Source: Bacillota bacterium (GTDB lineage: Bacteria; Bacillota; Sulfobacillia; Sulfobacillales; Sulfobacillaceae). From it: 32,928 nucleotides of DNA. Made by a program: the position numbers and the translations under genes. Below the pieces are notes generated by a model that did not search any database, was not told the origin of the DNA, and saw nothing but the letters and a program-made list of their open reading frames with translations. Location: the NCBI GenBank assembly GCA_023475835.1, contig JAMCVM010000014.1, positions 1-32,928 of the forward strand, given 5' to 3'. Positions within the stretch are counted from its first letter, which is position 1; every line of letters starts with the position of its first letter. This document shows, one piece after another, positions 1 through 18,025 of the stretch.

Positions 1-624
1 GCCCGAAAGTGTGGCATCGACCCTTCAACGCCATGGGAGTTCGTTGTCGAGATTCGACCACAAGTAGCCCACCGGCAGCGCTATCGCTGGGTCGGTGAGT
101 GTGGGGGACAGGATGCGGTCGCGAGTGATCGAAATGCCCTCGCCAAAGGGGCAGACCTCACTCCTCCCGTCGCCGATCCTAGGGAAGCTTCGGAGGCCAA
201 CACTGCGGCGGAGATTCCCCGGGGCTTTACGGCCTCCGGGCCCTTGAGTGTGATTCCCCGCGGACTGTTTACCCACCAATGGCTCATCCCAGGGTTAGCC
301 TGGAAATATCTCTGGAGGGTCCCCGTCCATCACCTGCGCCAAGTCTGGAAGACCCAGGGGGCCAATATTGCAGCTGGAAGTCTGGTGGGAGCGCTCCAAC
401 CCCTGGGGCCGATCTTCGAGCCCTGGTACGAAGCCCTTCAAAAAGTCCATCAGGCGGAACCGTGGTGGCATGCGGATGAACCCCATGGGAAAGTGTTCGC
501 GGCAACCGCGGGCAAGGTGGGGTATCGATGGTGGCTTTCGGTGTTGTTGGCGCCAACTGGATTTGTCATCGGTTCCGCTAACTTTCGTGCCATCAGATAC
601 ACCACAAATCATAACCAGACGTAA
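1..624 (+). pseudogene. IS66-family transposase, 5' part (decayed, enters from left edge)
   Basis: Frame 1 is open from the first base to a stop at 622-624. The translation has the layout of an IS66 transposase. A basic Cys-containing segment is followed by the conserved block PRGLFTHQWLI and KYLWRVPVHHLRQVW, then by WWHADE, where the first catalytic acidic residue is expected. Similarity ends near base 560, just after GYRWWLSVLLAPTG, and the tail to the stop is not IS66-like. The C-terminal half reappears at 974-1489, so this is one broken gene. The true start lies outside the window. Family assignment rests on remembered motifs. Confidence 0.75.
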
Positions 625-772
625 AGCCGAGATCAGCCCAAGGGGCTGGAATTCGCTGATTGACGTACCCAGAAAACCCACTGCCTACGCCAATCAGCGA
701 ATGCTGAGAATACCATAGGGCGAGTTCCCCGACCACCAGTGAACCCTGGAATTAGGCTAGAACTGATGACTA

Positions 773-899
773 TACTGCCCGCGGGTCAAATTTTTCGTTT
801 TTTAGGAGAGTGATCGGATACACGAAAGCCTTGTTTAGTGGGATGTTGGAGTGATCCCGGCTTCGCGGCCAAATCGTCAAGTGTGTCCCGCGCGCAGTA
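773..899. mobile_element. MITE-like element, copy A (127 bp, TA target duplication)
   Basis: The left end reads TACTGCCCGCGGGTCAAA and the right end, reverse-complemented, reads TACTGCGCGCGGGACAC, giving imperfect terminal inverted repeats. The element is flanked by TA on both sides (771-772 and 900-901), the duplication expected for IS630/Tc1-type transposition. It has no coding capacity. A related 126-bp copy in opposite orientation lies at 17328-17453. The element sits between the two halves of the IS66 transposase. Confidence 0.7.
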
Positions 900-973
900 T
901 ACAGGCTTAGCCAAACCATAGACAAAAGGAGTTAGCCAAAACAGGTGTTCAGCGGCCCCCAGTCGACGGGGTA

Positions 974-1489
974 TTGGCCCAGCCCTTGCCGCAGCGCCAA
1001 GGTCCCCATCGACTATTTGCCAGGCGATGGTGCGACCGATGGGATGTAACGAGTGGGTGGTACAAAGGGTTGATCACCGATTTCTTGGGAGCCTATCGCG
1101 CCCTGCTGGGGGGCATTATTCATACTTGGTGTTCGGCGCACATTCGTCGGAAGTTCCTGTCGGCGGGGCGGGTGCCTGGCTTGACTGCCTGGAGCGAACT
1201 CTGGGTCCAGCGCGTTGCCCGCCTCTATCGGCTACACGAGTTATGGAATTTGCAGAAGCCCAAATCCATGGGCTGGAGCATTGTGGATAGTCACCTGCGC
1301 CGGTGGGTCGACAGCCTGGCGACCCACCGGTGCCAGGAACTGGCCGATCCGAATTTGACGGAAGCTGCCCGGAGGGTCTTGGCCCCTGTGGAGCGCCAAT
1401 GGGAAGGATTGACCCGGTTTCTCGGTATATATTCGGTGTTGCAACTCGTAACTTCCTCATCCCTGCGTGAGGAGAACCTGCGACGCTAA
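974..1489 (+). pseudogene. IS66-family transposase, 3' part (decayed)
   Basis: The open frame contains LITDFLGAYRALLGG followed by HTWCSAHIRRKFL. This is the second catalytic acidic region and the CxAHxRR block of IS66 transposases. Further on, EAARRVLAPVERQWEGL matches the region before the final catalytic glutamate. The expected DNN...AER..R motif is lost, because the frame degenerates after base 1430. The methionine at 974 is not a real start, as the gene began upstream of base 1. About 350 bp separate the two halves, of which 127 bp is the MITE-like insertion. The rest is unrecognised. Confidence 0.7.
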
Positions 1490-1884
1490 ATTGCCCCATC
1501 AGCCTCAAACCCTGAGGACATCTCGGGCGAGCGAGCCCCAGGGCGAAAGCTCCACGGAACAGATCCTGGCGACCGCAAGCTGGGTTCGACCAGGAAGTAG
1601 CCATCGACCGGGCCGTAGTATCGAGCCAATCCTGTCGCCTTGTCCATGTCTCCGCATGCAGTGGATTTGCGGACGAATCAGAACGCGCAGCCTGGTGCCG
1701 AAGGGCGAAGGCAGTTCCTCGGGGTGAAAATAAGTGGAAGCACCCCGGGATATGGAGAGCAGCACGGTCAAAACCGGATGGCAAGCAAAGCGAGCCACGA
1801 CTTCACCCCCGCCGGTAGCTCTTCAGCGCATCCTGGGCCTCCCGGCACCGGCAAGGGGCCTGGCCCGGCGTATCAGCGCGAACC

Positions 1885-2304
1885 GTGAACTCGACGGGTG
1901 GTACGAAGCCGGGCCGATCGGATCGTCGGACTGAGGACGCGAAGGACCACAAAACGATGGGTAATGGATGGAACGATGATCGATGCCACGGGGGCCAAAG
2001 CCCATTACCCGGATCCTCGAGTGACCCTGAGGTGGGACCGAGCGCATCTCCAGTGTTTCATGGGAGGAATACGGTCATGGCCCTCGCGAACACTTGGCTT
2101 GATGGCACCTATTACGGGCGCGGACAACCCTTGGAAGTCACCGGCGGGGGACGCACTCGACCGCAATGGTATTTGGAAGAGTTGACGTATCCTTTTCATC
2201 GTCGGACCATGAGCACCGGGATGGCCGACCGCTTACGGATGGCGTGTGTGACGAGCCCCCCACCTCCGTCCGCCAGAGAGGGCGACCACCCGGTTGCCGC
2301 TTAG
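1885..2304 (+). pseudogene. IS1595/ISXO2-type transposase remnant (C-terminal part)
   Basis: Translation from about 2078 gives TWLDGTYYG, then YLEELTYPFHRRTMSTGMAD and RLRMACVTSPP. This resembles the C-terminus of ISXO2-like transposases, which carry a WL.GTY.G segment followed by YL.E..YRFNRR. Upstream, the sequence encoding HYPDPRVTLRWDRAHLQCFMG is in a different frame, so at least one frameshift is present near 2070. No catalytic core survives upstream and no terminal repeats were recognised. It is a transposase fossil. Confidence 0.5.
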
Positions 2305-3142
2305 GCCACCGTCATCGAATATTCAGGGTCAAATGAGGTTCCATGGAGCGTAACGTCGGGGGATTGGAGGCTTTATTGCCTCTGTGTGCTTCTTCCAATC
2401 CAATAGACCACCAAGCCTAATGTTTCCTAATTCCTCGTCTGAAGCTTCGGCCGATCTCATCAGACTCTCGAATCCTTTGGGTATGACCCCTCATCCGAAT
2501 CTCCACTCCCAAATCGGTCGAATCGGCGCATTGGCTTAAAGGCAATACGCTTCCGTAAAGTCCGCCGGTAGAGACTCTTCCCTACCACTTGGCGGATTGT
2601 GGGGTGCATGTTGAGCATTCCCCTACACACTCCTTCGGGCGGTGGGCCAGGTATTAGGCCACAAGGCGACACGGGCAGTCCCAGGGAGTGGACCGAAGGG
2701 CAACCTTCCCCGGTTCGTCCGGCAGCCTATGGTATTTAGACGGCGGTCGGTCGAATTCCTTTCGGCAGGTTTATCCACCATAAACAGCGAAGAACCATAA
2801 AGGAGCATAAAACCCCTATAAGAAAGACCCGAACAATGCGACTGATCCATCTCCTCGTGGCAAACCTTTACCCAAACATGAGAGTGGTACCCGCTAAGCC
2901 CGTTTGGCCCGGAACGAATTCGCGCAGCCATTCTCGGAGGCAACTCTACTACCAAACTGCCGCTAACGCTTGAGCACTACGGTTCCCGAGGCCTAGACCT
3001 TTTCCCTTGGCCTACGAACACCCGGATGGGCCGAGAATAGGACACCGATCGCGTTGTCGAATGTTCGACCGGAATCCTCCGACGATTTTTCGCTATCCTG
3101 TCTCTACCGCGTCTTCGCTGCGTGGAATAGCAATCAGGGGGG
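2305..3142. other. Region without recognisable gene
   Basis: About 840 bp. Open frames here are short, lack ribosome sites and give no family-like translation. A minus-strand frame at 2623-2955 is open for 110 codons but has no recognisable motif. The right end must contain the promoter for the prepilin operon. The region is probably old insertion debris. Confidence 0.5.
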
Positions 3143-3181
3143 ATGGATGTGGGACGCTGGTTGAAATTTTGGGGTGAACGG

Positions 3182-3343
3182 ATGGCACTCTTTTTTGCCC
3201 CAAAAGACGGCAACGTCTTTATCGAAAATGGGATATGGATCATTATCGTGGTCTTAGCGATGATCGTACCCATCGAAGCATTGCGAAACGCCTTAATCAA
3301 TGCCTTTGGACAAATCACAAACAACTTGAACTCGATTCCGTAG
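3182..3343 (+). CDS. Short type IVb (Flp/Tad-like) prepilin candidate
   Basis: A 53-residue protein starting at ATG 3182, preceded by GGGGTGA at 3173-3179. An in-frame ATG at 3143 would add 13 residues but has its purine tract too close. The sequence has a short leader ending in Lys-Asp-Gly, then NVFIE, then the hydrophobic stretch GIWIIIVVLAMIV, then an amphipathic tail. Gly followed by four residues and Glu at +5 is the prepilin-peptidase recognition pattern. Its size and layout match Flp-type pilins, which assemble into thin adhesive fibres. It heads a three-gene operon whose second product has the same Gly/xxxxE pattern. No prepilin peptidase or assembly ATPase is in the window. Confidence 0.6.
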   Translation: MALFFAPKDGNVFIENGIWIIIVVLAMIVPIEALRNALINAFGQITNNLNSIP

Positions 3344-3681
3344 ATGGTAGCGTATTTATCGAACTAGCCTTAGTGTTGCCGATGATCATGATGGTAATAT
3401 GGGGGAGTGTAGCGGTGTTTCAAGTCATGGAAGTCAACCTCGCCCTTAATGATGCAGCAGTTGTGGGCGTACAGGCCGAGATGGACGGAGCTAGTAGCGG
3501 TGCCGTGGAAGAGGATATTGACACCGCGTTGCAACAGGCGGGGATCAATCCGCGCGTTGTCTCCATCCAGTTACAGAGCGGGTCATCGCTAACCGACGTT
3601 CACTTGTCCACGTCGCTACAACTTCCGGTAGTCGGAGCCGTGACCATTTCGGCCACGCAACAAAGCTATGCAACGCCTTAA
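3235..3681 (+). CDS. TadE-like pseudopilin
   Basis: A 148-residue product. The only usual start codon in frame before the membrane segment is ATG 3235, which overlaps the previous gene by 109 bp. Near residue 38 the sequence reads DG then SVFIE, followed by LALVLPMIMMVIWGSVAVF. That is a prepilin-type cleavage motif with a transmembrane helix typical of TadE-like minor pilins. After it comes a soluble domain of about 85 residues. The upstream neighbour has an almost identical processing site (NVFIE). Alternative explanations for the long overlap are translational coupling, a rare start codon, or a frameshift joining the two genes. Confidence 0.6.
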   Translation: MDHYRGLSDDRTHRSIAKRLNQCLWTNHKQLELDSVDGSVFIELALVLPMIMMVIWGSVAVFQVMEVNLALNDAAVVGVQAEMDGASSGAVEEDIDTALQQAGINPRVVSIQLQSGSSLTDVHLSTSLQLPVVGAVTISATQQSYATP

Positions 3682-4075
3682 GGAGAGGTGGCTAAAAGAT
3701 CGGCAAGGAAACGTCTTGATTCTGTCCGTGGTATGGATTGCAGTGATCGTCGCGGGCTGTTTGGCGACCGCCGATGTGGGTTCAGGGTTAGCGGTGCGCC
3801 TTCGTCTGTCAGGTGCTATGTCCGCTGCTGCAACGAGTTTGGAACAATCGATGCGCTATGCCGGGCCCACCCGGGACAGCGCAGTGACCTTTCAAGCGAT
3901 AGTCCAACGAGATCTTGGCGACCAATTGACGTTTCGGCTAGCAAATTTTGACGTCCGTCGTGGAGGTCGGCTAGGATGGGAAGTGACCGCTACGGGGTAC
4001 GTTCTCTGGCCAATAGTGGCTCTGGTCGGCAGTACTCACGACGTGGTTATAGCGGACCAGGTAGGCTCTTTATAA
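3668..4075 (+). CDS. TadE/TadG-like pilus-associated membrane protein
   Basis: A 135-residue product starting inside the last 14 bp of the preceding TadE-like gene, so translation is probably coupled. The N-terminus is basic (MQRLKERWLKDRQG), followed by NVLILSVVWIAVIVAGCLA, a single membrane helix. A Gly precedes the helix as in prepilins, but the +5 position is Leu rather than Glu, so cleavage is doubtful. The rest is a soluble domain of about 100 residues without recognised catalytic motifs. Its place as third gene of a pilin operon suggests a minor pilin or TadG-like role. Confidence 0.5.
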   Translation: MQRLKERWLKDRQGNVLILSVVWIAVIVAGCLATADVGSGLAVRLRLSGAMSAAATSLEQSMRYAGPTRDSAVTFQAIVQRDLGDQLTFRLANFDVRRGGRLGWEVTATGYVLWPIVALVGSTHDVVIADQVGSL

Positions 4076-4543
4076 ATAGCGGTACATCGACGACGTCCTA
4101 GTTCCCGGATGTGCCGCTTTCAGCCCTTGGTGCCCCAACCTGTCGTCGGCCATAGGGACTGATGTGCTGTGGCCAAGCACTCAGTGCGTCTTTCCCTATA
4201 CCGGCGAAGGCTTTGGGGTTGGTTGGATGCCAGAAGATGCGAGTGCGTAGGGGACGAGATTCGCTCGGGCGCGACAAAGGTTCGAATCCCAAGTCCGAAC
4301 GTTAGTCACGACCTATTTGCGACGCTGAATTACGGGCTGACAGCTCCTAGATTTTCACGGCTCGGACGACAGGACCTAATCTAGAACTCTGAACGAACGC
4401 AAGTAGGATAGCGCCAAAATTTGTCATCGCAGCCTCGGTTGTGGTCGCTTGTTTGCGTCGGGATAGCCGCATTGCCATGGGGGCACATCCCCATCTTAGC
4501 TACTCGCATTTGCTATAGTAGTAGCGGAAGAGGAGATGACGTG
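4076..4543. other. Intergenic region, no gene recognised
   Basis: About 470 bp between the pilin operon and the ATPase gene. Open frames are short and unconvincing. GGTTCGAATCC at 4281-4291 matches the consensus T-loop core of a tRNA. However, the flanking bases do not form a T-stem and no D-arm or anticodon arm lies upstream, so a tRNA is not called. Confidence 0.4.
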
Positions 4544-5275
4544 ATGTTCTTGCGCCAGGTCCGGTTTATTGATTTTCCCAAGGGGTCCGGTTATCCGTTT
4601 GATCTCCCGGCCTTCCAGGGGGTGAAAACGATCAACTTCGAGCACTGTGTCACCTTCCTGGTCGGAGAAAATGGCAGCGGGAAGTCCATCCTGCTGGAGG
4701 CCATCGCTGTGCAAGCTGGGTTTAACGCGGAAGGAGGGTCTAGGGGGAATCGCTTCGCGACGGTGTCTGCCCATTTCGAGCTGTCCGATTACATCCAGCT
4801 AAGTTGGATGCCTAAAGTCACCGATGGTTTCTTTTTTCGAGCCGAAAGTTTTTTCACCTTCGCCACCTATATCGATGACCTAGAACCCTTGATTTCTGAC
4901 CCGTATAGCGCTTATGGCGGCCGACCTCTTCACGAACAGTCCCATGGCGAGTCCTTTCTGAATCTATTCACGCATCGCTTAGGAAACCGACGACCCGCGC
5001 TATATCTTTTGGACGAACCGGAGGCGGCACTGTCGCCGTCCCGTCAACTAGCCTTCTTGCGAATCTTGCGTAACCACGAACAAATCGGACGATCGCAATT
5101 CATCATTGCGACTCACTCGCCCATAATTCTTGGCTATCCTGAAGCCGACTTGTTTACCTTTGATGATGGTCCGCTCCGCTACACTTTCTATCATGACACC
5201 GATCACTATCAGATCACCCGACAATTTCTTAACGCCCCGGAGCCGATACTGCGAGAATTATTCAAGGGCGAGTAA
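4544..5275 (+). CDS. AAA/ABC-type ATPase (RecF/SMC-like, COG3910 style)
   Basis: A 243-residue protein. ATG 4544 is preferred because GAGGAG lies 8 bases upstream; a GTG directly before it is an alternative. The Walker A motif GENGSGKS is at residues 41-48. A signature-like SHGES follows the middle insert. Walker B LYLLDEPEAALS is near residue 155 and the H-loop IIATHSP near 190. These are ABC-type ATPase features in a small soluble protein without membrane segments, as in the predicted ATPase family COG3910. The partner and role are unknown; relatives act on nucleic acids or with nucleases. The next gene is 490 bp away, so no operon is evident. Confidence 0.8.
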   Translation: MFLRQVRFIDFPKGSGYPFDLPAFQGVKTINFEHCVTFLVGENGSGKSILLEAIAVQAGFNAEGGSRGNRFATVSAHFELSDYIQLSWMPKVTDGFFFRAESFFTFATYIDDLEPLISDPYSAYGGRPLHEQSHGESFLNLFTHRLGNRRPALYLLDEPEAALSPSRQLAFLRILRNHEQIGRSQFIIATHSPIILGYPEADLFTFDDGPLRYTFYHDTDHYQITRQFLNAPEPILRELFKGE

Positions 5276-5768
5276 GCGTGTATCCCTGGCTCAGCCTTCC
5301 GCAGGATATTATGGGGCGGGAGGAGATATTTGAAGTCTTGTCCGAACCCTTGGCGTGGTCTAACGTCTCGTCGGCTAGGGTCTCGGCAGCGAGCTGGGGG
5401 TAACTCTAGGCTAGTAGCAAGAACGGGGCCCCTCGGTGAGCGCACGACGAACATGGTCAATGCTGCTGACACCGTTTGTTTTTCGTAGCTCGACAAAAGG
5501 CCAAATGCTTTTGCCCCGGCTGCGCCACGAAGTGGGCTCCGAACCAATGGCTCGCTCTGGGTTGGCCTAGCAGGTTTCGTTGGAGCGATTGGCGAAGTGT
5601 ACCGCGAACCGCTAACCATGCAGACGAACTTCGGCGGTCACAGTTGAGCGCCAGAGTCGAATCCAAGCTCCATCCAAAACCGCTGACAGTGTCGAAAGTT
5701 GTGGAAATGCCGTTTACGAATTCGCCGGGCTTTGCCTACATGCTTAGCCTCAAAGGAGCCGCCGTTTC
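5276..5768. other. Intergenic region, no gene recognised
   Basis: About 490 bp. Short frames only. One frame reads CFCPGCATKWAP, a possible zinc-ribbon scrap, but it lacks a start site and a partner motif. The last 30 bp hold the AAAGGAG ribosome site for the metallopeptidase gene. Confidence 0.4.
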
Positions 5769-6491
5769 ATGCAAACGATTAACATCGGAGATGTGTCCAT
5801 TGTGTACTCCGTAGAACAGCGGCCACGCCGAAAGTATGTGGCCATAGAAATTGTCGCCCACAATCAGATTAACGTCCTCATTCCGCCATCATTCGATCAC
5901 CTCGAGGTAGAATCCTGGCTCCGCCGAGAGGCTGGGTGGGTGTTAAAGCAACTGCACACGCAGTCTCCAACGGGCATCCTACCGGCAAAACACTTCGCGA
6001 ATGGAGAACAGTTTTGGTTCCAAGGGAATCTCTTTCCGCTGGCTATCGCTTATCAGCCGGTATCCACCGCTCTGGTGGAGTTGGGAAACGCCCAACTCCA
6101 CGTGGTGTTGCCTTCGGACTTTCGATTGAATCCGTCAAACGAGCCTATTCGCCGTGCCTTAATCACCTGGTATGCGGAACAGGCGCGAGAACAGTTGCCG
6201 GAACGAATCGAAGCATTCGGACCCATTGTGGGAGCATGGCCCACTCGCCTAAAAATTTCTGACTATAAGTCGCGTTGGGGCTCGTGCAGTCATGATGGTA
6301 CCATCGCTTTCAACTGGCGCATCATTCAAGCTCCTTTGTTCGCCATGGATTATGTTGTGGTTCACGAACTGACGCATCGGATCCATCACGGTCACGGTCC
6401 CGCGTTTCATGCGGCAATTCAGGCAATTCTTCCCAATGCGGCCGAACGTCGGCAGTGGTTCAAGCAGCATGCTCCAGATCTTCGCTGGTAG
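5769..6491 (+). CDS. YgjP-like (DUF45, M48-type) zinc metallopeptidase
   Basis: A 240-residue protein with AAAGGAG about 9 bases before ATG 5769. The C-terminal third has the DUF45 signature: YKSRWGSCS near residue 167, then VVVHELTHRIHHGHGPAFH. HELTH occupies residues 199-203, with His199, Glu200 and His203 as zinc and catalytic residues, and His209 as likely third ligand. The length fits the family (about 230-240). The family is found across bacteria, sometimes beside restriction-modification genes; the substrate is not established. The gene stands alone and converges on pnkp, with a hairpin between them at 6591-6617. Confidence 0.88.
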   Translation: MQTINIGDVSIVYSVEQRPRRKYVAIEIVAHNQINVLIPPSFDHLEVESWLRREAGWVLKQLHTQSPTGILPAKHFANGEQFWFQGNLFPLAIAYQPVSTALVELGNAQLHVVLPSDFRLNPSNEPIRRALITWYAEQAREQLPERIEAFGPIVGAWPTRLKISDYKSRWGSCSHDGTIAFNWRIIQAPLFAMDYVVVHELTHRIHHGHGPAFHAAIQAILPNAAERRQWFKQHAPDLRW

Positions 6492-6579
6492 CCGCATGCG
6501 GGGCTAGGACAAACTCAGGCCCCTAAGCCGACTCGGACCACATTCTGATAGGTCGGCGTCCCAACGATATCCTTCTAAT

Positions 6580-6623
6580 CGTTGCCCGGATTTCTCGCCG
6601 AACAGTTCCGCGAGAAAACAACG
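6580..6623. terminator. Hairpin between convergent genes
   Basis: TTTCTCGC (6591-6598) pairs perfectly with GCGAGAAA (6610-6617) around an 11-nt loop. CGTTG (6580-6584) and CAACG (6619-6623) can extend the structure after an internal bulge. It lies between the convergent metallopeptidase and pnkp genes. There is no clean T-tract, so efficiency is uncertain. Confidence 0.4.
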
Positions 6624-6736
6624 AATGGGGGTAGGAAGACGGGAGAGGGCCCACTCCGTCGTTGAATGTTGTGGCCGTCAGGGTGCGAAATCGCGGAAGA
6701 CCGAGGGCCGAAAAATTTACGGCCCCGACTTGCTCT

Positions 6737-9294
6737 TCAGCCGAGGGTCGACCGGCTGACTTTCCAAGGCCAAAATAGCGTGGCCACACTCATGTACACG
6801 GCGGAGGGTTCATGTTGGACGAAGCGATGCAGTCCTTCCACGCCCAAAGCGAATTCTCGGATCGCCGGCGACTGTTTCGTCGCTAAGCCACGGTGCCTAA
6901 GCCGGTCAAGATTAGCGTCCACGCTGTAATCAGGGCCATAAATGATGTGTAGGTATTGTCGACCCCGTACTTTGATGGCCGGTTGGATGATGCGTCCGCG
7001 GTCGTTTCTCGACAAAAAGTGCAACGGCTTGACCACGATGCCTTCGCCGCCCAGTCGGGTCACTTCTTCCCACCACTGGACCGCGTCCGTCCGGCTGGCA
7101 GTATCGTCCAGTTGCCAATGACGTTGCGGGGTCTCTTGGAACAGAGACTGGTCGGATGAAAAGTGAGTCTGAATCCGGTCCAGATGCCATCCGTGCGTTT
7201 GATTGGCATGGACGGCTCCTTCCGACGCCAAGAGGTGCAAAGGGGCTAATCTTAGACCTTCGATATTGTCCACGGGCCAAGAGTACCTTCGATACACGTC
7301 GATAAACTGTTGCAGGCGTTCACGCCGACCCAAAATATTGGCCCGGAGGTCGGATGCCTTTTCGACACCCCGTCGTTCAGCCTGATTTAGAGCGTTGTCT
7401 GCAGCGGCCAACGCCACCGCTCCGACGCGACCAACGGCCGCATATTGATTCATAATCAGAGGTTGGGCTTTTAGCGACCAGGGCATTAACTCGGAGTCCA
7501 AAAGCACCCAATCCGACTGCAATTGGGCATATAGGCCCGAGTCATGAAGCGCTCGACCCACTCGTGCAAGCAACTCTTGTTCTCTTTTCGGGTCTTCAAA
7601 GAAAGGACGTCCGCTCCGGGTATAGACAACGCCCATACTGCCTGGGCCGACCCCGAACCGCCGTTGGGCCGCATTTTCGTGTTGACACACAATCATCATC
7701 GCGCGCGAACCCATGTGTTTTTCTTCGCAGACGACCTCTCTCAGACCCTCTGGTTGAAAGTAGGCGAAAGCCTGTTCCGGATGCTCCAGTGTCTTGGGCA
7801 GAAGACTGGTGGCGGCAGGCGACAGGGTCGGAGGAAGATAAATGAGCCAATGCGGGTCTACCGCAAAGCGGCGTAACCCTTCTAAGGCAGCGGGACTGTT
7901 CTCTTCGAGTATGCTGATATGACCGAGCAATTCGGTGGCAACGCGACGGCGGCCAGTCACGTCGTCCAGGTCCAGCACCTCCTCAGATTCTTGCTGAACG
8001 CTCGGGGCCGAAATCGACCGGTGTCCAATCGGAGGGATCGGATCGTAATAGGTTTGAAACGCCGAAACTTCAACTAATGTTTTCTCGGGATACCGCAGCG
8101 CAGTGAGCGCTCCACCAAAAACACAACCCGTGTCGACATCGATGGTATGGTTCAGCCATTCGGGTTGAGGCACGGGCGTATGGCCATAAACGACCATGGC
8201 CTGGCCTCGGTAGTCGCTGGCCCAATTGTAACGAACTGGTAGTCCAAACTCATCCGTCTCGCCGGTGGTTTCCCCATACAAAGCAAAGTCGCGCACCTTG
8301 GCCGATCCTCGTCCGTGCATCGTTTCAGGCAACCCGGCGTGAGCCACCACCAGCTTTCCGTCGTCAAGCACGAAATGATTGACCAAACTCTGTAAGAAGT
8401 CTTGCACTTTTTGTTGAAACTCGGGAGACTTTGCAGCCATCGGCTCCAAGCTCTCCTGAAGGCCGTGGGACACCGTAACTTTCTGGCCTTTAAGCTTTTT
8501 TAAACGGTTAGATTCATGATTACCGGGCAGGCACAGCGCCGCCCCGTCACTCACGGCCCCCATGACTAAACCCAACACTTCAGCCACTTTCGGCCCGCGA
8601 TCGACTAAATCTCCCAAAAATACCAGCTTTCGCCCCTGGGGGTGGTGAACGTGGTACGTGTGCGACCCATCCAGGGATACCTAATATCCCAACTTTTCCA
8701 TTAACGCAATCAATTCGTCATAGCATCCATGAACATCCTCGATGATGTCGAACGGTCCGTGTTCGTGCTTCCTATTGCTCCAGAGCGGCTGTCGTTCCCA
8801 ACTAAAGCCCTCGACATCTTCTTCGCAGGACAAGGCGATTATTTGATGAAATCCCTCGCGTCGAAGTTTGGACACGGAGGCATGCAGTTGACGAATTTGG
8901 CGATGGACAACATCGCGCGGAATGGCGCGATCCGTCCGCTCGGCATTGTGGTTAAGACAGACGGCCTCTGGGAGGTCAAAGACGATCGCCACGAATAGAA
9001 AATGATGGTCGCGAGCCTGGGAAATTAGAGAACGGCGACATCCGGGCAAAACATTGGTGGCATGATAACGGTCAGTCGACCCCGAGCCATCCGTTGGCCG
9101 GCAATGACATGAAGCAGTTCCAACGCGTCTTTTGTCGCATCCTGGTTGGTTTCGTCGTCAGAGACCAGGCCGCGGCAGACGTCGGAGGAGACGACTTCAC
9201 TGGCAAGAAACTGTCTCAGGGCAAAGTAAGACTTTCCTGCGCCGGAGGCACCAACCAGCAGTGCGAGGGAAAGCTCAGGAATTTTAGCTACCAT
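6737..9294 (-). pseudogene. pnkp: Polynucleotide kinase-phosphatase Pnkp, one frameshift and one in-frame TAG
   Basis: A bacterial RNA-repair enzyme with three domains. The kinase domain has P-loop GASGAGKS. The metallophosphatase domain has DVHGCYDEL, GDLVDRGPK and GNHE. The ligase-like adenylyltransferase domain has CEEKHMGSRA with the lysine nucleophile and ends at 6737. ATG 9294 overlaps the hen1 stop, so the two are coupled. Combined length, about 850 codons, matches the family. Two lesions break it. One G is missing between 9063 and 9064, in the codon expected to be Asp of V-D-A-T-N; the next frame continues the homology exactly. An in-frame TAG lies at 8681-8683, right after EKLGY, with homology continuing as VSLDG. 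The usual GDVHG also reads EDVHG. The downstream frame is otherwise well conserved. Confidence 0.9.
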
Positions 9295-10678
9295 TTCGCA
9301 TAAACACCCCCATCTGAGTCGGTGAACCGACCAAAGGATCGGTCGGTCCCACTCCTTCAATACGCACCTGGTAGCCAAAACGCAGGCTGACGTCATGTGC
9401 CCATGCTGAAAACTCGTTTCGGGTCCATTCGAATTGGTGATCCGGATTTCGGAGTCGGCCATCGGCCAGCCCTACAAACCTTGGGTTGGATTCGACATTG
9501 GGGGTGGTTACGATAACTAGGGGAGGGCGAGTAAATTCGAACACCACCCGTTCGAAGGAAGCGAGCCGTGAACGGTCCAAATGTTCTAGCACCTCGACAA
9601 TGGCGGCGGCATCATATCCTTGCAGGCGTCGATCACGGTAAGTCAGGGACCCATGCAGCAAGCGCAGTCTTCCCGCATGACTGCTGGGCAAGCGATCTAA
9701 ATGCAAGCGCTTTTCTGCCCGTTTTAAGGCTGCAGGAGACACATCCAGACCCACAATTTCGTGGAAAGTCGAATCCTGTACCAACAACTGGAGCAATCGA
9801 CATTCTCCACAGCCAAGGTCTAGCACGCGCTTTGCTCCATAGTTTCAAAATTCCTCAACCACTCTGTTTAGGCGCTCCGTGCTGAGGGAATCCGTCCGAG
9901 CCGGGTGAGCTTGGGTTTTAGAGTCGGGCGAATCCGGCACGTCGTCCTCTCCTTCGAGAACCAGGCGAGCCATGGCGGCTTCTGCCAACGGCCGACTGCG
10001 CTTAAGATATCTCCAGGTAATGAGGTCGCGATCGGGATGGGCGTGCAGCCAGCCGGAGCCATGACGCAAAAGTTTAGCGATTTCATCTTCTCCAATGTAG
10101 TAATGCTTCTCATTGTCGAGGACTGGGAGCAGGACATAGAGGTGACTCAATAGCTAGTGCAACGGCAGGGTGGCCGTTAGCGTCACCGTATAATATGGAC
10201 TGTTGCCCCATTCGGGGAAATGATCGTCGAGTAAGGTTCCCTCAATGCTCATGGTGTAGCCTAAGGGCTGAAACAGGCGTCGGATCAACGAAGCGCCCCC
10301 ATTACATGGCAGCACCGCCAGGGTCGCCTGGAGTGCAATGGGCGTCAGCGCTAATTCCGGTCGAGCTGTGCAACGGCCCGCCAACGCGGTGCCAAACACC
10401 TGCGCTAGGGCCACCGACATAAAAGAAGAAACCGTATACGGGCGATCATTCACGTATTGGTCAGTGACGGCTTCCTGCCCTCGACCGGTTCGAACCAAGC
10501 CGACTGCGTCGATGTTCAGCAGTAAAGCGGCGGTGCAGGAATCCTCATCGGCCGAAGGATAAAACACATGCGCCTGCCCAAACGAGAGAGGAAACGATTG
10601 CAGCCTATCGGGATGTTTGTGAAGCAAGAACCCAAGGTCCGTAGCGGGTTGATGCGTCGTCGTAATGGTCAAAAGCAT
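9284..10678 (-). pseudogene. hen1: Hen1 3'-terminal RNA ribose 2'-O-methyltransferase with two in-frame stops
   Basis: A full-length frame of 464 codons plus stop. The start is placed at ATG 10678, giving the family N-terminus MLLTITTTHQPATDLG. The N-terminal domain shows LSFGQAHVFYP, DQYVNDRPY and QVFGTALAGR. The C-terminal methyltransferase has the SAM-binding LDLGCGE, the metal-ligand motif EVLEHLD (ExxEH) and DHQFEWTR with the further His. Codon 175 is TAG (10154-10156), between LPLH and LLSHLYVLLPVL. Codon 278 is TGA (9845-9847), between VVEEF and NYGAKRVLDLG. Both are strictly in frame with homology on both sides. In known systems Hen1 methylates the repaired RNA terminus with Pnkp. Here it would yield three fragments unless the stops are read through. 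Confidence 0.9.
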
Positions 10679-11172
10679 GAAGCCGTTCACACTCTTTTCC
10701 TGTGCACTTGTCCTTTGACGATGGATAGGTCACCAAGACCTTACCGGCCAGGGGATTTTCGAATTCGTCATCTCGGTGAGCATCAGTCACCAAGTTAGCA
10801 GTAGTGTAACCTAATCCTCGCCGCTCGGAAAGGTCGGAAGACGAGCACAAGAAAGCCGGAGCGTACACGGCGTGATCTCGACTTAATGATCTCTCTTCCC
10901 TATCCTCATGCTCTTCTCTAGTGGAAGCGTTTACCGTAGGCAACGCGTCAACGCGATGCCTACGGGCCGTCGCTTGCGAAGCCGAGGACTAAAGAGAAGA
11001 TCAGGCAGTCGGTAATCGCGGGGGAGGAAGTTTAGCCGCTGACGGCGAAGGACTATGGTATGGAGCCTTGGTAAACCCATCGGCTGCCAAGGGGCCAAGG
11101 ACTTGTGCGCAGCATGAATTCATTGGCAATCGCCTTGTTCCTGAGCCTCGGGATGATAGGGGAGAACCGCAT
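10679..11172. other. Divergent upstream region of hen1 and the ABC operon
   Basis: About 490 bp with no recognised gene. A minus-strand frame (10605-10943) is open but has no known motif and overlaps the hen1 start. CCGTAGGCA (10934-10942) and TGCCTACGG (10957-10965) form a perfect 9-bp hairpin with a 14-nt loop. It could be regulatory or a terminator without a T-tract. Promoters for both divergent operons should be here, but none is clear. Confidence 0.4.
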
Positions 11173-11955
11173 TTGAGAGAGGTGTGGGCGGACGTGGACG
11201 AACTGCGACTGCAAGTAGAGGATTTGACGGTGCAATACGGGGCTTACACGGCCATAGCGGGGCTGAACTTGGGAATTCCGCGAGGCCAGTATGTGGTGCT
11301 GATCGGGGAAAACGGTGCGGGCAAGTCTAGCCTGTTGAAATGTGTAGGCGGTTGGATCCGTCCCAGTCAGGGGTCGCTGCGGATGGATGGTCAGTTGTTT
11401 GAAGAACACGAAAGGGCCCTGCGTGCCCAGGTGAAGCTGGTGCCCGATACGCCCGCCTTTTATCCCGAACTCAACGCCTGGGAGCACGTCGACTTGGTGA
11501 TGAGTGCCCATCGCCGTCGTCGAGACGAAGACTTGCGTCGCGAGGCTCGCAGTTGGTTTGAAGCTTTCGGCATCGATCGCAGTCGCGAGGCCTATCCCTC
11601 AAGCTTTTCACGCGGCATGCAATATAAATTGGCGATCATCATGTCGATTCTCACCCGACCGAACGTGCTGTTGTTGGATGAGCCCTACGGTCCGCTCGAT
11701 CCCGCCTCGCAATCTTACTTAGCCAGTCAACTAACCCAACTTGCTGCTACGGGGGTTAGCATTATCGTGAGTACGCATTTACTGCCCAACGACCATCCAC
11801 CGGAGCGCGTGATCATGCTCGACCAGGGAAGCTTGGCGCTGGATATTCCCCTCAGTGAAAAATGGAACCCTGAATCCGACGTGCCTTTGGCTTTAATCCC
11901 GGAACAGCTTTTGCGTCAGGTCTTGGCCGAACGACGAGGATTGCCCCATGAATGA
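11173..11955 (+). CDS. ABC transporter ATP-binding protein
   Basis: A 260-residue nucleotide-binding subunit. TTG 11173 is chosen as start because AGGGGAG lies 8 bases upstream and the domain begins right after (LRLQVEDLTVQYG). The frame is open upstream to 11068 but that part is not ABC-like. Motifs are Walker A GENGAGKS at residues 45-52, signature SFSRGMQ, Walker B VLLLDEPYGPLD and H-loop STHLL. The C-terminal tail resembles EcsA/YtrB-type exporters. The stop overlaps the start of the permease gene by 8 bp, so the two form a translationally coupled exporter. The substrate cannot be told. Confidence 0.85.
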   Translation: MREVWADVDELRLQVEDLTVQYGAYTAIAGLNLGIPRGQYVVLIGENGAGKSSLLKCVGGWIRPSQGSLRMDGQLFEEHERALRAQVKLVPDTPAFYPELNAWEHVDLVMSAHRRRRDEDLRREARSWFEAFGIDRSREAYPSSFSRGMQYKLAIIMSILTRPNVLLLDEPYGPLDPASQSYLASQLTQLAATGVSIIVSTHLLPNDHPPERVIMLDQGSLALDIPLSEKWNPESDVPLALIPEQLLRQVLAERRGLPHE

Positions 11956-13429
11956 GTTGATTGCGGTCGGCCGGATTCGATATCGTCGCAGTCGCGCGCA
12001 ATGGTTTTATTGGCTGAAAGTTCTAGGCGTCGACGACCAAAAGCCCGACATTTGGCAGTCCCTGTATGCGCTCTATCTCTTAGCTATTGTGTGTGGGTGG
12101 GTGGTGTTGAGTTGGGCCGGAATCGTCTCGATTGCGCATCATTTGGGTGGGCCCGTGAGTGCCCTATGGTTAAATCGCCTGCCGCTCATCTTCACCCTTG
12201 TCGCCATCCTGGTGGTGACCTGGCAAGTGGCCAGGATTCCATTGCGCCTTGGCCACGGCGATCTAGAATGGCTGGCCCCTTCCCCTATATCGCGCCGTAT
12301 TCCTGTGCTGTTTGATCTCATCCCTAAGCAAGCCGTGCGTTTAATGATGATCACCTTAATTGGCAGTGTGTTGGCATCCGCGATTCATGCCCCTCAATAC
12401 TTAGGGCTTGGGCTTTTGGTCGGTCTTTGGTGGCTGGCCATGGAATCGTTCGGCTATGCGGCTTCCCTGTGGCGGGCATCCCGACCCCGGGGGCCGTTGC
12501 CCAGCCTCTGGATTGCCGTGCTGCTTGGACTCGTCGGCCTGTTATCGGTGCTTCGTGCCCCCATGGTCTGGCCCAGCCATTTCGTCATCTTGCCTCTCAC
12601 TGAACATGCCTGGCAGACCGCCTTTATGGGAGTGGGTGCCTGGTTGATTGCAGGTTGGCTAGCCATCTGGCTGGCCGCACCGAGCGTGCATATGCTGACC
12701 ATCCAAAAGGGCAGTGTATTGTACGCGGACATTCGAGGATTAGGAACGCGCTATGCACCCAATCCGGGATTGGTTCAAGAGCTGCGGCAAAAGGCTGTGT
12801 TGAGTCGGCGGCGGCCTTGGGGCCGACTGCCCGAAGGATCGTCTCGATGGTGGGAATTAGGCCGATGGTTTTGGAGTATGGTCCGGATGCCCGGGCAAAT
12901 TTTGAGGTTTTTTGAATTGTCTTTGTTCTTGCGCGCGGGATTGTTATTAGCCAGCGACCGTCGGATTTCGCTGGCCTGGCTGATTTGGGTGTTTGTCGCC
13001 TATTGGTTTCGACGGGCCAGTCTTAGCCGCTGGTTTCGAACCGATGTGGGCGACCCCTTTATCCGCCAATTTTGGCCGGATACATTGGCCCATCGCCTAG
13101 TATGGAGCACCCTCCATCCGCTGCTCTGGGTGCTCGCGATCGCCGTCTCGGCATGGGTCATTCTTCCCGCAGGAACCGAGTTTACGCTGACCCATCTGCT
13201 GTTCCTCATCGGACTCGCCGTCTCTTGGTGGCTAGGCGAGGCGGTACTGATCATCCGCCAAATCGACAATGACGGGCGGACGGACGGTGCCCACTTGGGC
13301 TCCGTGGTGGCCGTCGGAGCGATGATGTTTGTCGGAGCCCAACTTCATCATCCTGGCGCTGCCTTGGCGGTCCCGATCATTTTACTCTTGTGGTTTTTCG
13401 GCCAATGGCAAACCGGATCAGCATCTTAA
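11948..13429 (+). CDS. ABC transporter permease (EcsB-like)
   Basis: A 493-residue membrane protein, ATG overlapping the end of the ATPase gene. Hydrophobic segments include SLYALYLLAIVCGWVVLSWAG, the run near LIFTLVAILVVTW, LGLGLLVGLWWLAM, LWIAVLLGLVGLLSVL and four more toward the C-terminus, giving about ten helices. A central hydrophilic loop lies around residues 255-320. There is no fused ATPase. The size and layout resemble EcsB-type permeases, which in Bacillus influence secretion and proteolysis; that role is not proven here. Its partner is the gene directly upstream. Confidence 0.75.
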   Translation: MNELIAVGRIRYRRSRAQWFYWLKVLGVDDQKPDIWQSLYALYLLAIVCGWVVLSWAGIVSIAHHLGGPVSALWLNRLPLIFTLVAILVVTWQVARIPLRLGHGDLEWLAPSPISRRIPVLFDLIPKQAVRLMMITLIGSVLASAIHAPQYLGLGLLVGLWWLAMESFGYAASLWRASRPRGPLPSLWIAVLLGLVGLLSVLRAPMVWPSHFVILPLTEHAWQTAFMGVGAWLIAGWLAIWLAAPSVHMLTIQKGSVLYADIRGLGTRYAPNPGLVQELRQKAVLSRRRPWGRLPEGSSRWWELGRWFWSMVRMPGQILRFFELSLFLRAGLLLASDRRISLAWLIWVFVAYWFRRASLSRWFRTDVGDPFIRQFWPDTLAHRLVWSTLHPLLWVLAIAVSAWVILPAGTEFTLTHLLFLIGLAVSWWLGEAVLIIRQIDNDGRTDGAHLGSVVAVGAMMFVGAQLHHPGAALAVPIILLLWFFGQWQTGSAS

Positions 13430-13462
13430 CTAAGAGCGTCCTGTCGTCTGCCCGCCCTGTGA

Positions 13463-13510
13463 CCGTCCTTTTGCCACACCCTACTTGCAGAGAGTGTGGC
13501 AAAAGGACGG
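13463..13510. terminator. Perfect 17-bp inverted repeat after the ABC operon
   Basis: CCGTCCTTTTGCCACAC (13463-13479) is an exact reverse complement of the bases at 13494-13510, with a 14-nt loop. It begins 34 bp after the permease stop, where a terminator is expected, but no T-tract follows on either strand. It may work as a factor-assisted terminator or be a small palindromic repeat. Confidence 0.5.
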
Positions 13511-13721
13511 ATCGCGCCAGCGGATACGAGGGCACACCTTCTTGTTGCGGCTGCTCCTTGGTACCTTAGGCTAGTCATGGCGGAGAAACCCCTGACCCGC
13601 GTTCCCCCGGCGCTCCCATGCAGGCGACCGGCGCCCGCCATGACCGCTCGGGGCGGGCGAGATTGGTCGGGTCGGGTATTCGGTGTGGCACCGGTGGTCT
13701 CGGGGGACAGGACTGGTGCGA

Positions 13722-13815
13722 AACCCGACAAAGCGTCTTTCGAAGCTCGCAACCGCGCGGGTTTCAGGGTCCCCGATCCGGTTTTTTAGGACTTATGCAC
13801 CAGGCCTCTAGCGCC
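13722..13815 (+). repeat. Dispersed repeat, copy 1 (IS-end-like)
   Basis: This stretch of about 94 bp matches 31034-31127 at roughly 80 of 94 positions by hand alignment. Both begin GCGAAACCCG and end around TTTTAGGACTTATGCACCA followed by CTCTAG. It does not encode a conserved frame. The sharp end and spread to unrelated decayed regions suggest the terminal part of an insertion sequence whose body is gone. Confidence 0.6.
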
Positions 13816-14190
13816 GATCTGACAGAGGCGCGTAAGCGATCCCTTCCAGACGATCGGCGCTAAAGAGTTGACCTCCGGCGTCAAATGAACAACGCGCAGA
13901 CTCGGTGAGAGTCGATCTCACCAGTTCTTGAGTCCCGGGCATACGGTCCAAAATATTTTCGCAGTCGGTAACAGAATGTATGACGCCTGAGTCTATTGTA
14001 GACGAACGACAAGGCTTACGAGAAGATGACGGGTCATCCTTCCACTGGTCCGCTCAGGGCCGGGTCTGAGTCTGTCGTTTGATGACTCGTCGTACTAAAT
14101 GGCACCAAAGCACAAAGTGCAAAGCGGCCAAGCCGAATGGTTCGAAGGCAAAATACAACGCCCGTCATCGGGCAGAGGAGTGAATCACTC
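13816..14190. other. Decayed intergenic DNA upstream of the SIMPL gene
   Basis: No convincing gene. The last 20 bp contain the AGAGGAG ribosome site of the SIMPL gene. The 5' part directly continues the IS-end-like repeat. Confidence 0.4.
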
Positions 14191-14928
14191 ATGAGAACAC
14201 CATATCGAAATGCAGCGGTAGTGGCGGGTGCCGCCATGGCCCTGGCGGTGACAGGATTCTTGCTGGCTCCGTTCGCGTCGTCTACTTCCTCCACCACCAG
14301 CCCGAGCACACTCACCGTAGAGGGGCAAGCCACGGTCAATATGAAGCCCAACCAGGCCGTAGTCAGTCTAGGCGATCAAGAATCAGCCAAATCGGCGAGC
14401 CTAGCAATGGCTCATAGTGCGGAGGTCACTCAGGCGATTATCCGGGCGGTTGAAACATCCGGGGTGCCAGCCTCGGAAATACAAACCGGCGGTCTCAGTC
14501 TCAATCCCGTTTATCCCCAGAACGCTAGTTCGAACCCGCCGACGGTCATCGGATACCAAGCCAGCGAGAGCCTAACTATCACCTTAACCAGTACCGCGTT
14601 GGCGGGCCCGGTACTGGATGCTGCCACCGCGGCTGGATCCAATCAGATCAATGGCGTGACCTTTAATATCACCGATCCGTCCGTGCTGTATCGTCAAGCC
14701 TTTGCTGCGGCGATAAACGACGCCCACAGTCAGGCTCAAGCAGCGCTGGCCCCCGAGCATGAAAAAATTCTCGCGATCCATTCCATGACATTGCAGAACA
14801 ACGGGTCGGGAAATACGACCCCAGAATACGCGGTCTTGACCAACGTCCCGGATGCTTCGGTGCCTGTCATGGCAGGAGAGGATCAGCTTTCAGTGCAGGT
14901 GACCGTGGTGTATTCGATCGGGCGTTGA
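14191..14928 (+). CDS. SIMPL (DUF541) domain protein, exported or membrane-anchored
   Basis: A 245-residue protein. ATG 14191 follows AGAGGAG by about 11 bases; the frame is open further upstream to 14137 but lacks a ribosome site there. Residues 7-28 form a hydrophobic signal or anchor (AVVAGAAMALAVTGFLLAPF), followed by a Ser/Thr-rich linker. From about residue 40 the SIMPL pattern appears: LTVEGQATVNMKPNQAVVSLG, then VIGYQASESLTITL, later FAAAINDAHSQAQA, and a C-terminal LSVQVTVVYSI. Family members are periplasmic or extracytoplasmic proteins of unclear molecular function. It appears monocistronic. Confidence 0.85.
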   Translation: MRTPYRNAAVVAGAAMALAVTGFLLAPFASSTSSTTSPSTLTVEGQATVNMKPNQAVVSLGDQESAKSASLAMAHSAEVTQAIIRAVETSGVPASEIQTGGLSLNPVYPQNASSNPPTVIGYQASESLTITLTSTALAGPVLDAATAAGSNQINGVTFNITDPSVLYRQAFAAAINDAHSQAQAALAPEHEKILAIHSMTLQNNGSGNTTPEYAVLTNVPDASVPVMAGEDQLSVQVTVVYSIGR

Positions 14929-15115
14929 GCCCAAGGGGCGTCAACGGTTTCTCCCACAAAGCGCCTAGCCCAACCTCGCCTGTCGAATCGCCGTGGCCAA
15001 ATTTCTGACCTCAAAGGCCCGTGGCTCGATGAATTGCGACTTGCTGACGATCATAGGTGCCACGGCCTCATGAGGAATTTCTCTTATCACGACGAATGTT
15101 GTCCTAAAGGCAGGC

Positions 15116-15697
15116 TTGGGCGGTGGGGGCTGGCAGCACTGGACCGAGTCGGCGGGAGATCAGGAATTTTTCGGAACAGAGGAGGGGAATTCTTCGGAAC
15201 CTACCCCAGCCGAAGCCATAGCCATTTTGTTCGACCAATATGGCGACGAAATCTTTAGCCATGTTCAACTCATGGTCGGTTCCATCCCCGATGCCGAAGA
15301 TTTGGTTCAAGACATTTTCTTACGGGCGTTGAGGGCTTGGCCATCTTTTCAAAAGCGATCATCGGCACGAACGTGGCTTTGGGCCATCACTCGCAATGTC
15401 CTCATCGATCATTACCGTTGGCAGAGTCGTGAAGGACAACAAAAGGAGGCGCTTAGAAGCCTGCCGCAGCCCAGGCGAACGGACTTGGCAGATCGCTTGG
15501 TGTGCTCCGAAGCCTTAGCCAGCCTGCCATGGCCGCAACGGCAAGTGTTTGTCTTGAGAGTCATTCAGGATCGCCCGTCTAAAGAGACCGCCGCGTTGCT
15601 GGGGTGGCCTGAAGTGCGGGTGCGCGTTACCTTGTATCGGGCATTAAAACGCCTTCGACAATGGTGGGATCAAGGAGGAGAGACTGGTGAAAAATAG
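15116..15697 (+). CDS. ECF-type RNA polymerase sigma factor
   Basis: A 193-residue protein. The likely start is TTG 15116 behind AAAGGCAGG; no ATG is in frame before the first domain, so the exact start is uncertain. Region 2 reads ILFDQYGDEIFSHVQLMVG and DAEDLVQDIFLRALRAW, with the -10 recognition segment RTWLWAITRNVLIDHYR. Region 4 reads LPWPQRQVFVLRVIQDRP, KETAALLGWPEVRVRVTLYR and ALKRLR. No extra C-terminal domain is present. The gene overlaps the following membrane-protein gene by 11 bp, the usual arrangement for a sigma factor and its anti-sigma factor. Confidence 0.88.
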   Translation: MGGGGWQHWTESAGDQEFFGTEEGNSSEPTPAEAIAILFDQYGDEIFSHVQLMVGSIPDAEDLVQDIFLRALRAWPSFQKRSSARTWLWAITRNVLIDHYRWQSREGQQKEALRSLPQPRRTDLADRLVCSEALASLPWPQRQVFVLRVIQDRPSKETAALLGWPEVRVRVTLYRALKRLRQWWDQGGETGEK

Positions 15698-16448
15698 GCT
15701 GACCGAATGGAAACAACGGTTTGCCCCGCTAACCGAAACGCCCATGTCCGATAGATTTCGAAGTTCGATGCTCACATTGTTAAGCTCAGAGTCCGCCCTG
15801 CCGGTACTTAGGTCTAATCACCCTGGGGCGCCCTTTAGACGAAGGCGCGGGCGCTTCATCTCTGCTGCGATGGGGATTGCGCTCATCGCCATCGCGGTGG
15901 TCCCGACGTTGACCATGCCAGCACAGATCCTGCCTCTTTTTAGAGCGTCACCGCCTTCGTTTTCTCCTCCGGTGAACGAATCGTCTCTGAGGCCCTCGTC
16001 GGCCGTGACGGCGGTGAGAGCCAGGTCGGCGGCGGGGCGAGGGGTTCCGATCTTGGAAGCAGGATGGCTTATCTATCATCGTCGCGTGTATATAGTCACC
16101 AACCGTCTGGTGGAGCGCGTCGGCCGAACCGACGCCCAGGTCGGCTCCGTTCGCTTGGGCGAAGTGCCCGGAGTAAATCCCGATCACGCTTTGGCAGTGC
16201 GTTATCAAACTGGTCAGGCTCAGCATCTGGCTCGATTCGCCTATCCCCAAGTAATCCGGTTTCGCGGGCGGGATTATAGGGTGTTGCATCCTGACCAGGG
16301 AGCGCATCCGGATCGGGTTTTGGGTGAAGTGAATTCCGTGTTTATCTATCGATTAGTCGGGATTTTACCCAGACATGCAATTGGATTACTCTTGGCTTCG
16401 ACTATCCCGCCGGTGACCGCCGAAGCCACTTCGCTTAAGTCCGGCTAG
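15687..16448 (+). CDS. Probable membrane-bound anti-sigma factor
   Basis: A 253-residue protein starting at GTG 15687 inside the end of the sigma gene, with GGAGGAGA upstream. Layout: about 55 cytoplasmic residues rich in basic amino acids, one transmembrane helix at roughly 58-78 (ISAAMGIALIAIAVVPTLTM), a Ser/Pro-rich linker, and an extracytoplasmic domain from about residue 115. There is no HxxxCxxC zinc motif, so it is not a classic ZAS anti-sigma factor. The function is inferred from the overlap with the ECF gene and the single-pass topology, not from recognised homology. Confidence 0.5.
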   Translation: MKNRLTEWKQRFAPLTETPMSDRFRSSMLTLLSSESALPVLRSNHPGAPFRRRRGRFISAAMGIALIAIAVVPTLTMPAQILPLFRASPPSFSPPVNESSLRPSSAVTAVRARSAAGRGVPILEAGWLIYHRRVYIVTNRLVERVGRTDAQVGSVRLGEVPGVNPDHALAVRYQTGQAQHLARFAYPQVIRFRGRDYRVLHPDQGAHPDRVLGEVNSVFIYRLVGILPRHAIGLLLASTIPPVTAEATSLKSG

Positions 16449-17327
16449 GTGAGAGCCGCTCATGATCCTTCGATGACTTTTCGCGGTCCTCCTTCAGTAG
16501 GGTCGAAGCCACGGTCTGAGGGCCCAATGGGTTTAGCGGGTTTGAGCCCGACCGACATTGCTGGCAAGCGCAAAAGCCTTGCCGAACGATCTCGATCGGA
16601 AATCAGCGCGAGCCAAAAGGCGTTGTGCGGCGCGGCGTTCATGCCCAAATCCCTTGGCCTACGATCATCCTTAGAGTCAAATCCGCGGTGCCTCCATGCC
16701 AACGGCTCGTTATCGTAGGCGATGATCTCCGGAACGCCCTGTTCCAGGCCGCTTGTCGGCGAAATCTCGGCATCCAAAGTCTCCGGCTTTCGCGCCTCTT
16801 GAGGGAGGGCCTGTTTTCTGCCAAAACGGGGCCAGGCTTTACCGGCTCCGAAAATACCTGCGGGATGATGCGCCAATCTTAGACGACCGAGGTCGACACG
16901 CTCTGAGCGTGAAGGAGCCAACTGGGACCTCGTGGAAATCATCGATAACGGATACCCAATTTGCGCCGCGTTCATTGCTAGTCCAGTACCGATTGACGGA
17001 TGGCACGAAGCGTTTTTTCAGGCCTCGACCCGGAATCCGGTCTTGGACCGTGTGGCCCATCCTGCCTGGAATATTGAGCGCTAACCCGGGGGCAATCGAC
17101 ATGCCCTGAGTATTGAATATCTCAGCGAACGGATAGACAGGCGGAGATTTTGAGACTAATACCGCGGGGCATATTTAGCCTGGCAGCCTGAACGCTTCTT
17201 GTGGCCGGAGTTTTTCATAGATTACCCCCTTGACATGCTCTCAGCAGGAAGAGGATGCTTACGAGGAAGCTACCAGCCTTGGCCACACTATTCCTGTGTG
17301 CACTCAAAGGGTCTAGCCGGGTGTCTA
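16449..17327. other. Decayed DNA, no recognisable intact gene
   Basis: About 880 bp. Minus-strand frames at 16460-16975 and 16839-17102 are open but in different phases, and neither shows a known motif. They may be pieces of an old transposase, which I cannot identify. Confidence 0.35.
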
Positions 17328-17453
17328 TACTGGGCGCGGGTCGCATTTGATAGTTTAATGCCAAATCTCTGAGCATCCCAACCTCTTGCTGTCTACTGGG
17401 TTCTGAGCACCGTGGCCGTCTCCTAAAACGGAAACTATGACCCGCCCGCAGTA
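17328..17453. mobile_element. MITE-like element, copy B (126 bp)
   Basis: The reverse complement of this element aligns end to end with 773-899. It starts TACTGCGGGCGGGTCA, continues with a GTTTTAGGAGA block shared with copy A, has a central GGGATG, and ends with a segment close to CCCGCGCCCAGTA. The left flank is TA (17326-17327); the right flank is CA (17454-17455), a one-base change from TA. Length and terminal repeats agree with copy A, so the two are separate insertions of one non-coding family. Confidence 0.7.
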
Positions 17454-17978: not shown

Positions 17979-17994
17979 CTGCAAATTGAATCAG

Positions 17995-18025
17995 AGGGCC
18001 GACCGATGGTGGACTCGTCGGCCCT
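17995..18025 (+). terminator. Hairpin terminator after sigma fragment
   Basis: AGGGCCGAC (17995-18003) pairs perfectly with GTCGGCCCT (18017-18025) around a 13-nt loop, followed by TCTTG. It lies 17 bp after the stop of the sigma fragment and suggests the fragment was once the end of a transcription unit. Confidence 0.5.

What the first reader, a model, noticed from the sequence alone, without database searches (positions are those of the whole stretch)
773..899. Small non-coding MITE-like family with TA target duplication
773-899 (127 bp) and 17328-17453 (126 bp, opposite orientation) align end to end, share TACTG-starting terminal inverted repeats, and are flanked by TA (one flank mutated to CA). 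This points to mobilisation by an IS630/Tc1-like transposase, none of which is in the window. Copy A lies between the halves of an IS66 transposase gene and may have helped break it.
Basis: seen in the sequence. Interest (0 to 1): 0.6.

Follow-up and report, generated by a model that had tools for sequence, protein, structure and literature searches.

The report
IS630-type MITE family, 127 bp
The two short repeats are copies of a genus-wide family of about 100 small "hitch-hiker" DNA elements that carry no gene, inserted at TA sites and share their ends with IS630 insertion sequences in the same genome, which probably move them; this is a new family of a well-known kind.

Summary
The window's own genome has at least 116 matches to this 127-bp family, its genus sister has at least 102, and the other relatives have 0-2 each. 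The window holds a third, decayed copy at 31163-31287. Copies are flanked by TA. Sites without the element carry a single TA, including a 99%-identical empty counterpart of copy A. Full-length IS630 elements with the same roughly 30-bp ends occur in this genome and its relatives; an intact 353-aa DD34E transposase is present. Copy interiors show no provable homology to those ISs, and the two arms do not covary. This is therefore best read as a type II MITE, mobilised in trans by IS630, like the pneumococcal RUP (107 bp, about 110 copies). One inference was wrong: copy A did not break the IS66 gene. A separate 270-bp repeat with a 5-bp GGTGT duplication did, and copy A later landed inside that repeat. 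Copy B's locus, MITE included, is shared with the sister genome. New family, ordinary mechanism.

The parts
773..899 (+). MITE copy A, 127 bp, young subfamily (12 other copies 92-98% identical in the genome)
771..772 (.). TA, left copy of the target duplication of copy A
   Evidence: single TA in the empty counterpart L180
900..901 (.). TA, right copy of the target duplication of copy A
773..803 (+). left terminal inverted repeat of copy A, TACTGCCCGCGGGTCAAATTTTTCGTTTTTT; about 30 bp resembling IS630 ends
871..899 (-). right terminal inverted repeat of copy A (TACTGCGCGCGGGACACACTTGACGATTT on the minus strand)
17328..17453 (-). MITE copy B, 126 bp, older subfamily; locus shared with the sister genome at about 99% identity
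17326..17327 (.). TA flank of copy B (other side, 17454-17455, reads CA)
545..943 (+). outer non-autonomous repeat, 270 bp without the MITE (TGTTGGCGC...CCAAAACA), split by MITE copy A; this insert broke the IS66 gene
540..544 (.). GGTGT, left copy of the 5-bp duplication of the outer repeat (right copy 944-948)
215..544 (+). first part of the interrupted IS66 transposase gene (ORF 244-624 reads on into the insert)
   Evidence: PF03050; 91.5% identical to L036 1-331
944..1428 (+). second part of the interrupted IS66 transposase gene (within ORF 974-1489)
   Evidence: PF03050; 88% identical to L036 326-812

Best explanation
The feature is a family of miniature inverted-repeat transposable elements: about 127 bp, no coding capacity, roughly 30-bp terminal inverted repeats starting TACTGCGCGCGGGTCA. 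SHOWN: copies sit between TA dinucleotides and their absence leaves one TA, so they insert by TA-duplicating transposition. SHOWN: IS630-family elements in the same and related genomes carry the same ends, and one transposase gene in this genome is apparently intact with a DD34E arrangement. INFERRED: that IS630 transposase binds the shared ends of the MITEs and moves them in trans by cut and paste into TA. The family is old in the genus (many copies 65-80% alike; copy B shared with the sister species), with a more recent burst in this genome (13 copies at 92-100%, including copy A). Copies survive mostly in non-coding or already decayed DNA. Copy A landed in a pre-existing non-autonomous repeat that had already split an IS66 gene.
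For: Copy number and confinement to the genus: 116 matches in the own genome, 102 in the sister, 0-2 elsewhere. TA on both sides in 47 of 53 recovered pairs (the search word held the TA but allowed 5 mismatches). Empty sites with single TA: copy A against L180 at 99%, copy L010:1501-1627 against sister-genome locus L163, several paralogous sites, and a MITE inserted at the TA within another MITE's end, in L033. IS630 with matching ends: sister L098, 1203 bp with perfect 18-bp words at both ends; L100, L138, own L042 and L039. Transposase: PF13358 DDE_3 and NF033545 transpos_IS630 at 213 bits against a cut-off of 100. TIR arms are conserved as a motif but do not covary, 85.8% paired against 86.0% in shuffles, as expected of protein-binding ends rather than a selected hairpin. 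Only 7 of 50 copies lie where the empty site would have an open frame of 150 aa or more, against 54% of random positions.
Against: No transposition was observed. The interior is not demonstrably derived from any IS630 found, so descent from a named parent by internal deletion is not shown. The intact transposase sits at a contig end, so its left end was inferred from another contig. The family is defined from two fragmented draft assemblies whose contigs often break at repeats.
Confidence: 0.92

Rival explanations
1. The elements are a structured RNA or ssDNA hairpin family kept for a host function (terminator, regulator) rather than transposon ends.
For: Individual copies fold better than shuffles (z -1.6 to -4.4), as any inverted repeat would. 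Copies lie mostly outside genes.
Against: No covariation between arms, no consensus structure, no Rfam match, no terminator call at copy A. Clean TA-duplicating empty sites show insertion.
Confidence: 0.04
2. The elements are ordinary internal-deletion derivatives (type I MITEs) of the IS630 elements found here; this concerns their origin, not how they move.
For: Ends match for about 30 bp. The older subfamily B shows a weak, position-matched resemblance to the transposase 3' end (1 of 300 shuffles in two of 132 comparisons; 55 of 1000 with a profile).
Against: The profile test is not significant and subfamily A shows no resemblance at all.
Confidence: 0.2
3. MITE copy A broke the IS66 gene.
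For: It does lie between the two IS66 parts.
Against: IS66 paralogue L036 aligns to 215-545 and 944-1428, so the insert is 399 bp, not 129. The outer 270-bp repeat exists elsewhere without the MITE and with the same boundaries.
Confidence: 0.01
4. A different TA-duplicating transposase (for example an IS5/IS427-type one) moves the family.
For: TA duplication alone does not single out IS630 (general knowledge).
Against: The only elements found carrying these ends encode IS630 transposases. IS5-type transposases were not searched for.
Confidence: 0.03

Closest known systems
RUP (repeat unit of pneumococcus), proposed to be mobilised by IS630-Spn1
   Same: Short (107 bp), about 108-110 copies, intergenic, TIRs like those of a resident IS630, TA target, no coding capacity (PMC2229807, PMC3049150).
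   Different: Different host group and sequence. 127 bp rather than 107, terminal repeats of about 30 bp rather than the 9 bp listed for RUP, and many strongly diverged copies here.
Type II prokaryotic MITEs (homology to an autonomous IS confined to the ends)
   Same: Only the roughly 30-bp ends are shared with the IS630 elements; definition in PMC10969869.
   Different: A weak resemblance of subfamily B to the transposase 3' end leaves type I origin open.
IS630 family insertion sequences (Tc1/mariner superfamily)
   Same: The elements that carry the same ends encode NF033545/PF13358 transposases, and TA flanks occur in both.
   Different: The MITE has no transposase; the IS copies are 1.1-1.2 kb where both closely matching ends were found (1.5-2.0 kb in some more distant relatives).
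Nezha (cyanobacterial MITE)
   Same: Another bacterial MITE family described as active (cited in PMC10969869).
   Different: Not compared in sequence here; resemblance is by kind only.

Membership tests
MITE | Short (50-500 bp), no transposase, terminal inverted repeats | tested here: met
   125-128 bp in all 54 aligned copies; TIRs
MITE | Many dispersed copies with clean target duplication and empty sites | tested here: met
   116 and 102 copies; single-TA empty sites
IS630-mobilised MITE (RUP-like) | Ends match those of a resident IS630 element | tested here: met
   own L042, L039, L040, C224; sister L098
IS630-mobilised MITE (RUP-like) | TA target duplication | tested here: met
   47 of 53 pairs with TA at both ends; empty sites
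IS630-mobilised MITE (RUP-like) | Transposition in trans by the IS630 transposase | not testable with these tools
   needs an in vivo or in vitro transposition assay
Type I MITE (internal deletion of the IS) | Interior homologous to the autonomous IS | tested here: inconclusive
   subfamily A negative, subfamily B marginal
IS630 family (for the partner element) | DDE_3 transposase with DD34E triad | tested here: met
   NF033545 213 bits, PF13358 83 bits; 34 residues between LDN and IERLW read from the ORF
Structured RNA family | Covarying base pairs | tested here: not met
   no Rfam match

The most novel reading that the evidence does not exclude
A genus-specific IS630-dependent MITE family that keeps its length at 125-128 bp through some 35% divergence of its copies, suggesting that the transpososome of this IS630 group needs a fixed end-to-end spacing, so that natural copies could reveal its geometry.
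Probability: 0.12. Interest if true: 0.45.

Novelty: new member of a known kind. Interest (0 to 1): 0.25.

Why it matters
It adds a well-documented bacterial MITE family with its likely partner IS, precise empty sites and two age classes of copies, in a poorly studied lineage. It also shows a stepwise nesting history (IS66, then a 270-bp repeat, then the MITE) and corrects which element broke the gene. The mechanism itself is already known from RUP and similar families.

Tried and rejected
A parental interior was sought by local alignment and by a profile of IS 3' ends; neither was convincing. RNA or hairpin selection was tested and rejected. Strict length selection: substitutions per gap run from 9 to 15 in divergent pairs, not clearly unusual, and the pair search limited the spacing to 100-140, so no claim is made. 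Searching the sister genome with the C159 region gave only repeats, so no orthologous empty site there. No exact TIR word in viral contigs and no match in plasmids. No paper on MITEs in Sulfobacillus, a guess at the host lineage, was found in the held library.

Full report
Check of the observation. Searching the window's own genome (G000, 3.8 Mb in 246 contigs, window = contig 146) with the 127 bp gave 13 copies at 92-100% identity and a long tail of diverged ones. The end word TATACTGCGCGCGGGTCA occurs 158 times with up to 3 mismatches, against 31 for the reversed control. A sequence model built from 54 aligned copies finds 116 copies in this genome, 102 in the only same-genus genome (G001) and 0-2 in the others searched; these are probably lower bounds, since only the best candidates were scored. 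In the window the model also finds a third copy, which was not in the model. Extended to its TA flanks it is 31163-31287, 125 bp.

Anatomy. Of 53 recovered end pairs, 36 have exactly the spacing of 127-bp copies; the 54 copies in the alignment are 125-128 bp. One of the 53 is a double count caused by a MITE nested in another MITE's end in L033. Pairs were sought at 100-140 bp spacing, so this distribution is conditioned. TA flanks both ends in 47 of 53. Two main subfamilies exist: a young one (copy A; 13 copies at 92-100% including itself) and an older, diverse one to which copy B belongs.

Empty sites. Copy A lies in a 270-bp repeat, and a 99%-identical copy of that repeat in G001 (L180) reads ...CTGATGACTACAGGCTTAG..., a single TA where the window has TA-MITE-TA; L182 in the own genome (97%) is likewise empty, with the TA mutated to TC. 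Copy L010:1501-1627 has an empty counterpart with a single TA in G001 (L163). In L033 a MITE sits at the TA of another MITE's own end. Insertion with duplication of TA is therefore shown.

Partner element. The genome has IS630-type transposase matches (PF13358, 18 places). Several lie within or beside the same ends: L042 (1213 bp between ends, broken gene), L039 and L040. In G001, L098 is a 1203-bp IS630 with perfect 18-bp end words on both sides, and G013 and G018 carry further ones. The best preserved transposase in the own genome is a 353-aa ORF on contig 224 (L082:83-1144), IS630 by NF033545 (213 bits, cut-off 100) and PF13358. Reading the ORF, 34 residues separate the second D (LDN) from the E (IERLW), the DD34E layout of the Tc1/IS630 group. 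Its right end is present on the contig; its left end was inferred from a matching end on contig 47. That this transposase moves the MITEs is inference from shared ends and shared target.

Origin of the interior. Beyond about 30 bp at each end the MITE does not align convincingly with any of these ISs. The best signals are 1 of 300 shuffles in two of 132 comparisons, and a position-anchored profile test gives 55 of 1000 for subfamily B and nothing for A. It is best called a type II MITE, with type I origin not excluded.

Not a hairpin RNA. Copies fold as any inverted repeat does, but the two arms pair no better than when their letters are dealt out at random among copies (85.8% against 86.0%), no consensus structure is found, and Rfam is silent. 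The ends behave as two independently conserved protein sites.

The IS66 question. ORFs 244-624 and 974-1489 both match the IS66 transposase. A paralogue, L036, runs uninterrupted through both parts; against it the window has an insert at 545-943 flanked by GGTGT on both sides. Matches to 546-770 begin exactly at the first base of the query in dozens of places, and L180/L182 show the whole 270-bp repeat without the MITE. So IS66 was broken by the 270-bp repeat, and the MITE either entered that repeat later at this site or came in with it; in either case the break is the outer repeat's. That copies of the same repeat lack the MITE makes later entry the simpler reading.

Age. Window 3245-18750 is collinear with G001 contig 112 at 96-99% identity, including copy B, so copy B predates the split or was transferred with the segment. 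Subfamily A copies match at best 80% in G001, so that burst looks recent in this genome. Copies are depleted from intact genes: 7 of 50 empty sites have an open frame of 150 aa or more, against 54% of random positions nearby.

Comparison. The nearest known case is RUP of Streptococcus pneumoniae: 107 bp, 108-110 copies, TIRs like IS630-Spn1, TA target (PMC2229807, PMC3049150). This family looks like RUP and meets every defining feature that could be tested; actual mobilisation was not testable. It is a new family of a known kind.

Host. 

Noticed in passing
window 545-943: A second high-copy non-autonomous repeat, 270 bp without the MITE, ends TGTT...AACA with imperfect inverted repeats and 5-bp duplication GGTGT. 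At least 46 matches in this genome and 40 in the sister genome; its partner transposase was not sought.
   Followed up: partly
window 31163-31287: Third, decayed MITE copy of the same family with TA on both sides, in a gap between ORFs.
   Followed up: yes
L043 503-1102: A MITE copy appears interrupted by an unrelated insert whose ends read CTCAGACTTCCC, probably yet another small mobile element.
   Followed up: no
window 10963/10964 versus L162 12043-12208: A 166-bp stretch is present in the sister genome and absent from the window in otherwise collinear DNA; it shows no TACTG ends.
   Followed up: partly
window 1-3244: The left 3.2 kb of the window, with transposon remnants, is not collinear with the sister genome's contig 112, whereas 3245-18750 is.
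   Followed up: partly
L020 1499-1876: A 378-bp stretch with TACTG ends on both sides, too short for a full transposase, possibly a second, longer MITE derived from the C224-type IS630.
   Followed up: no
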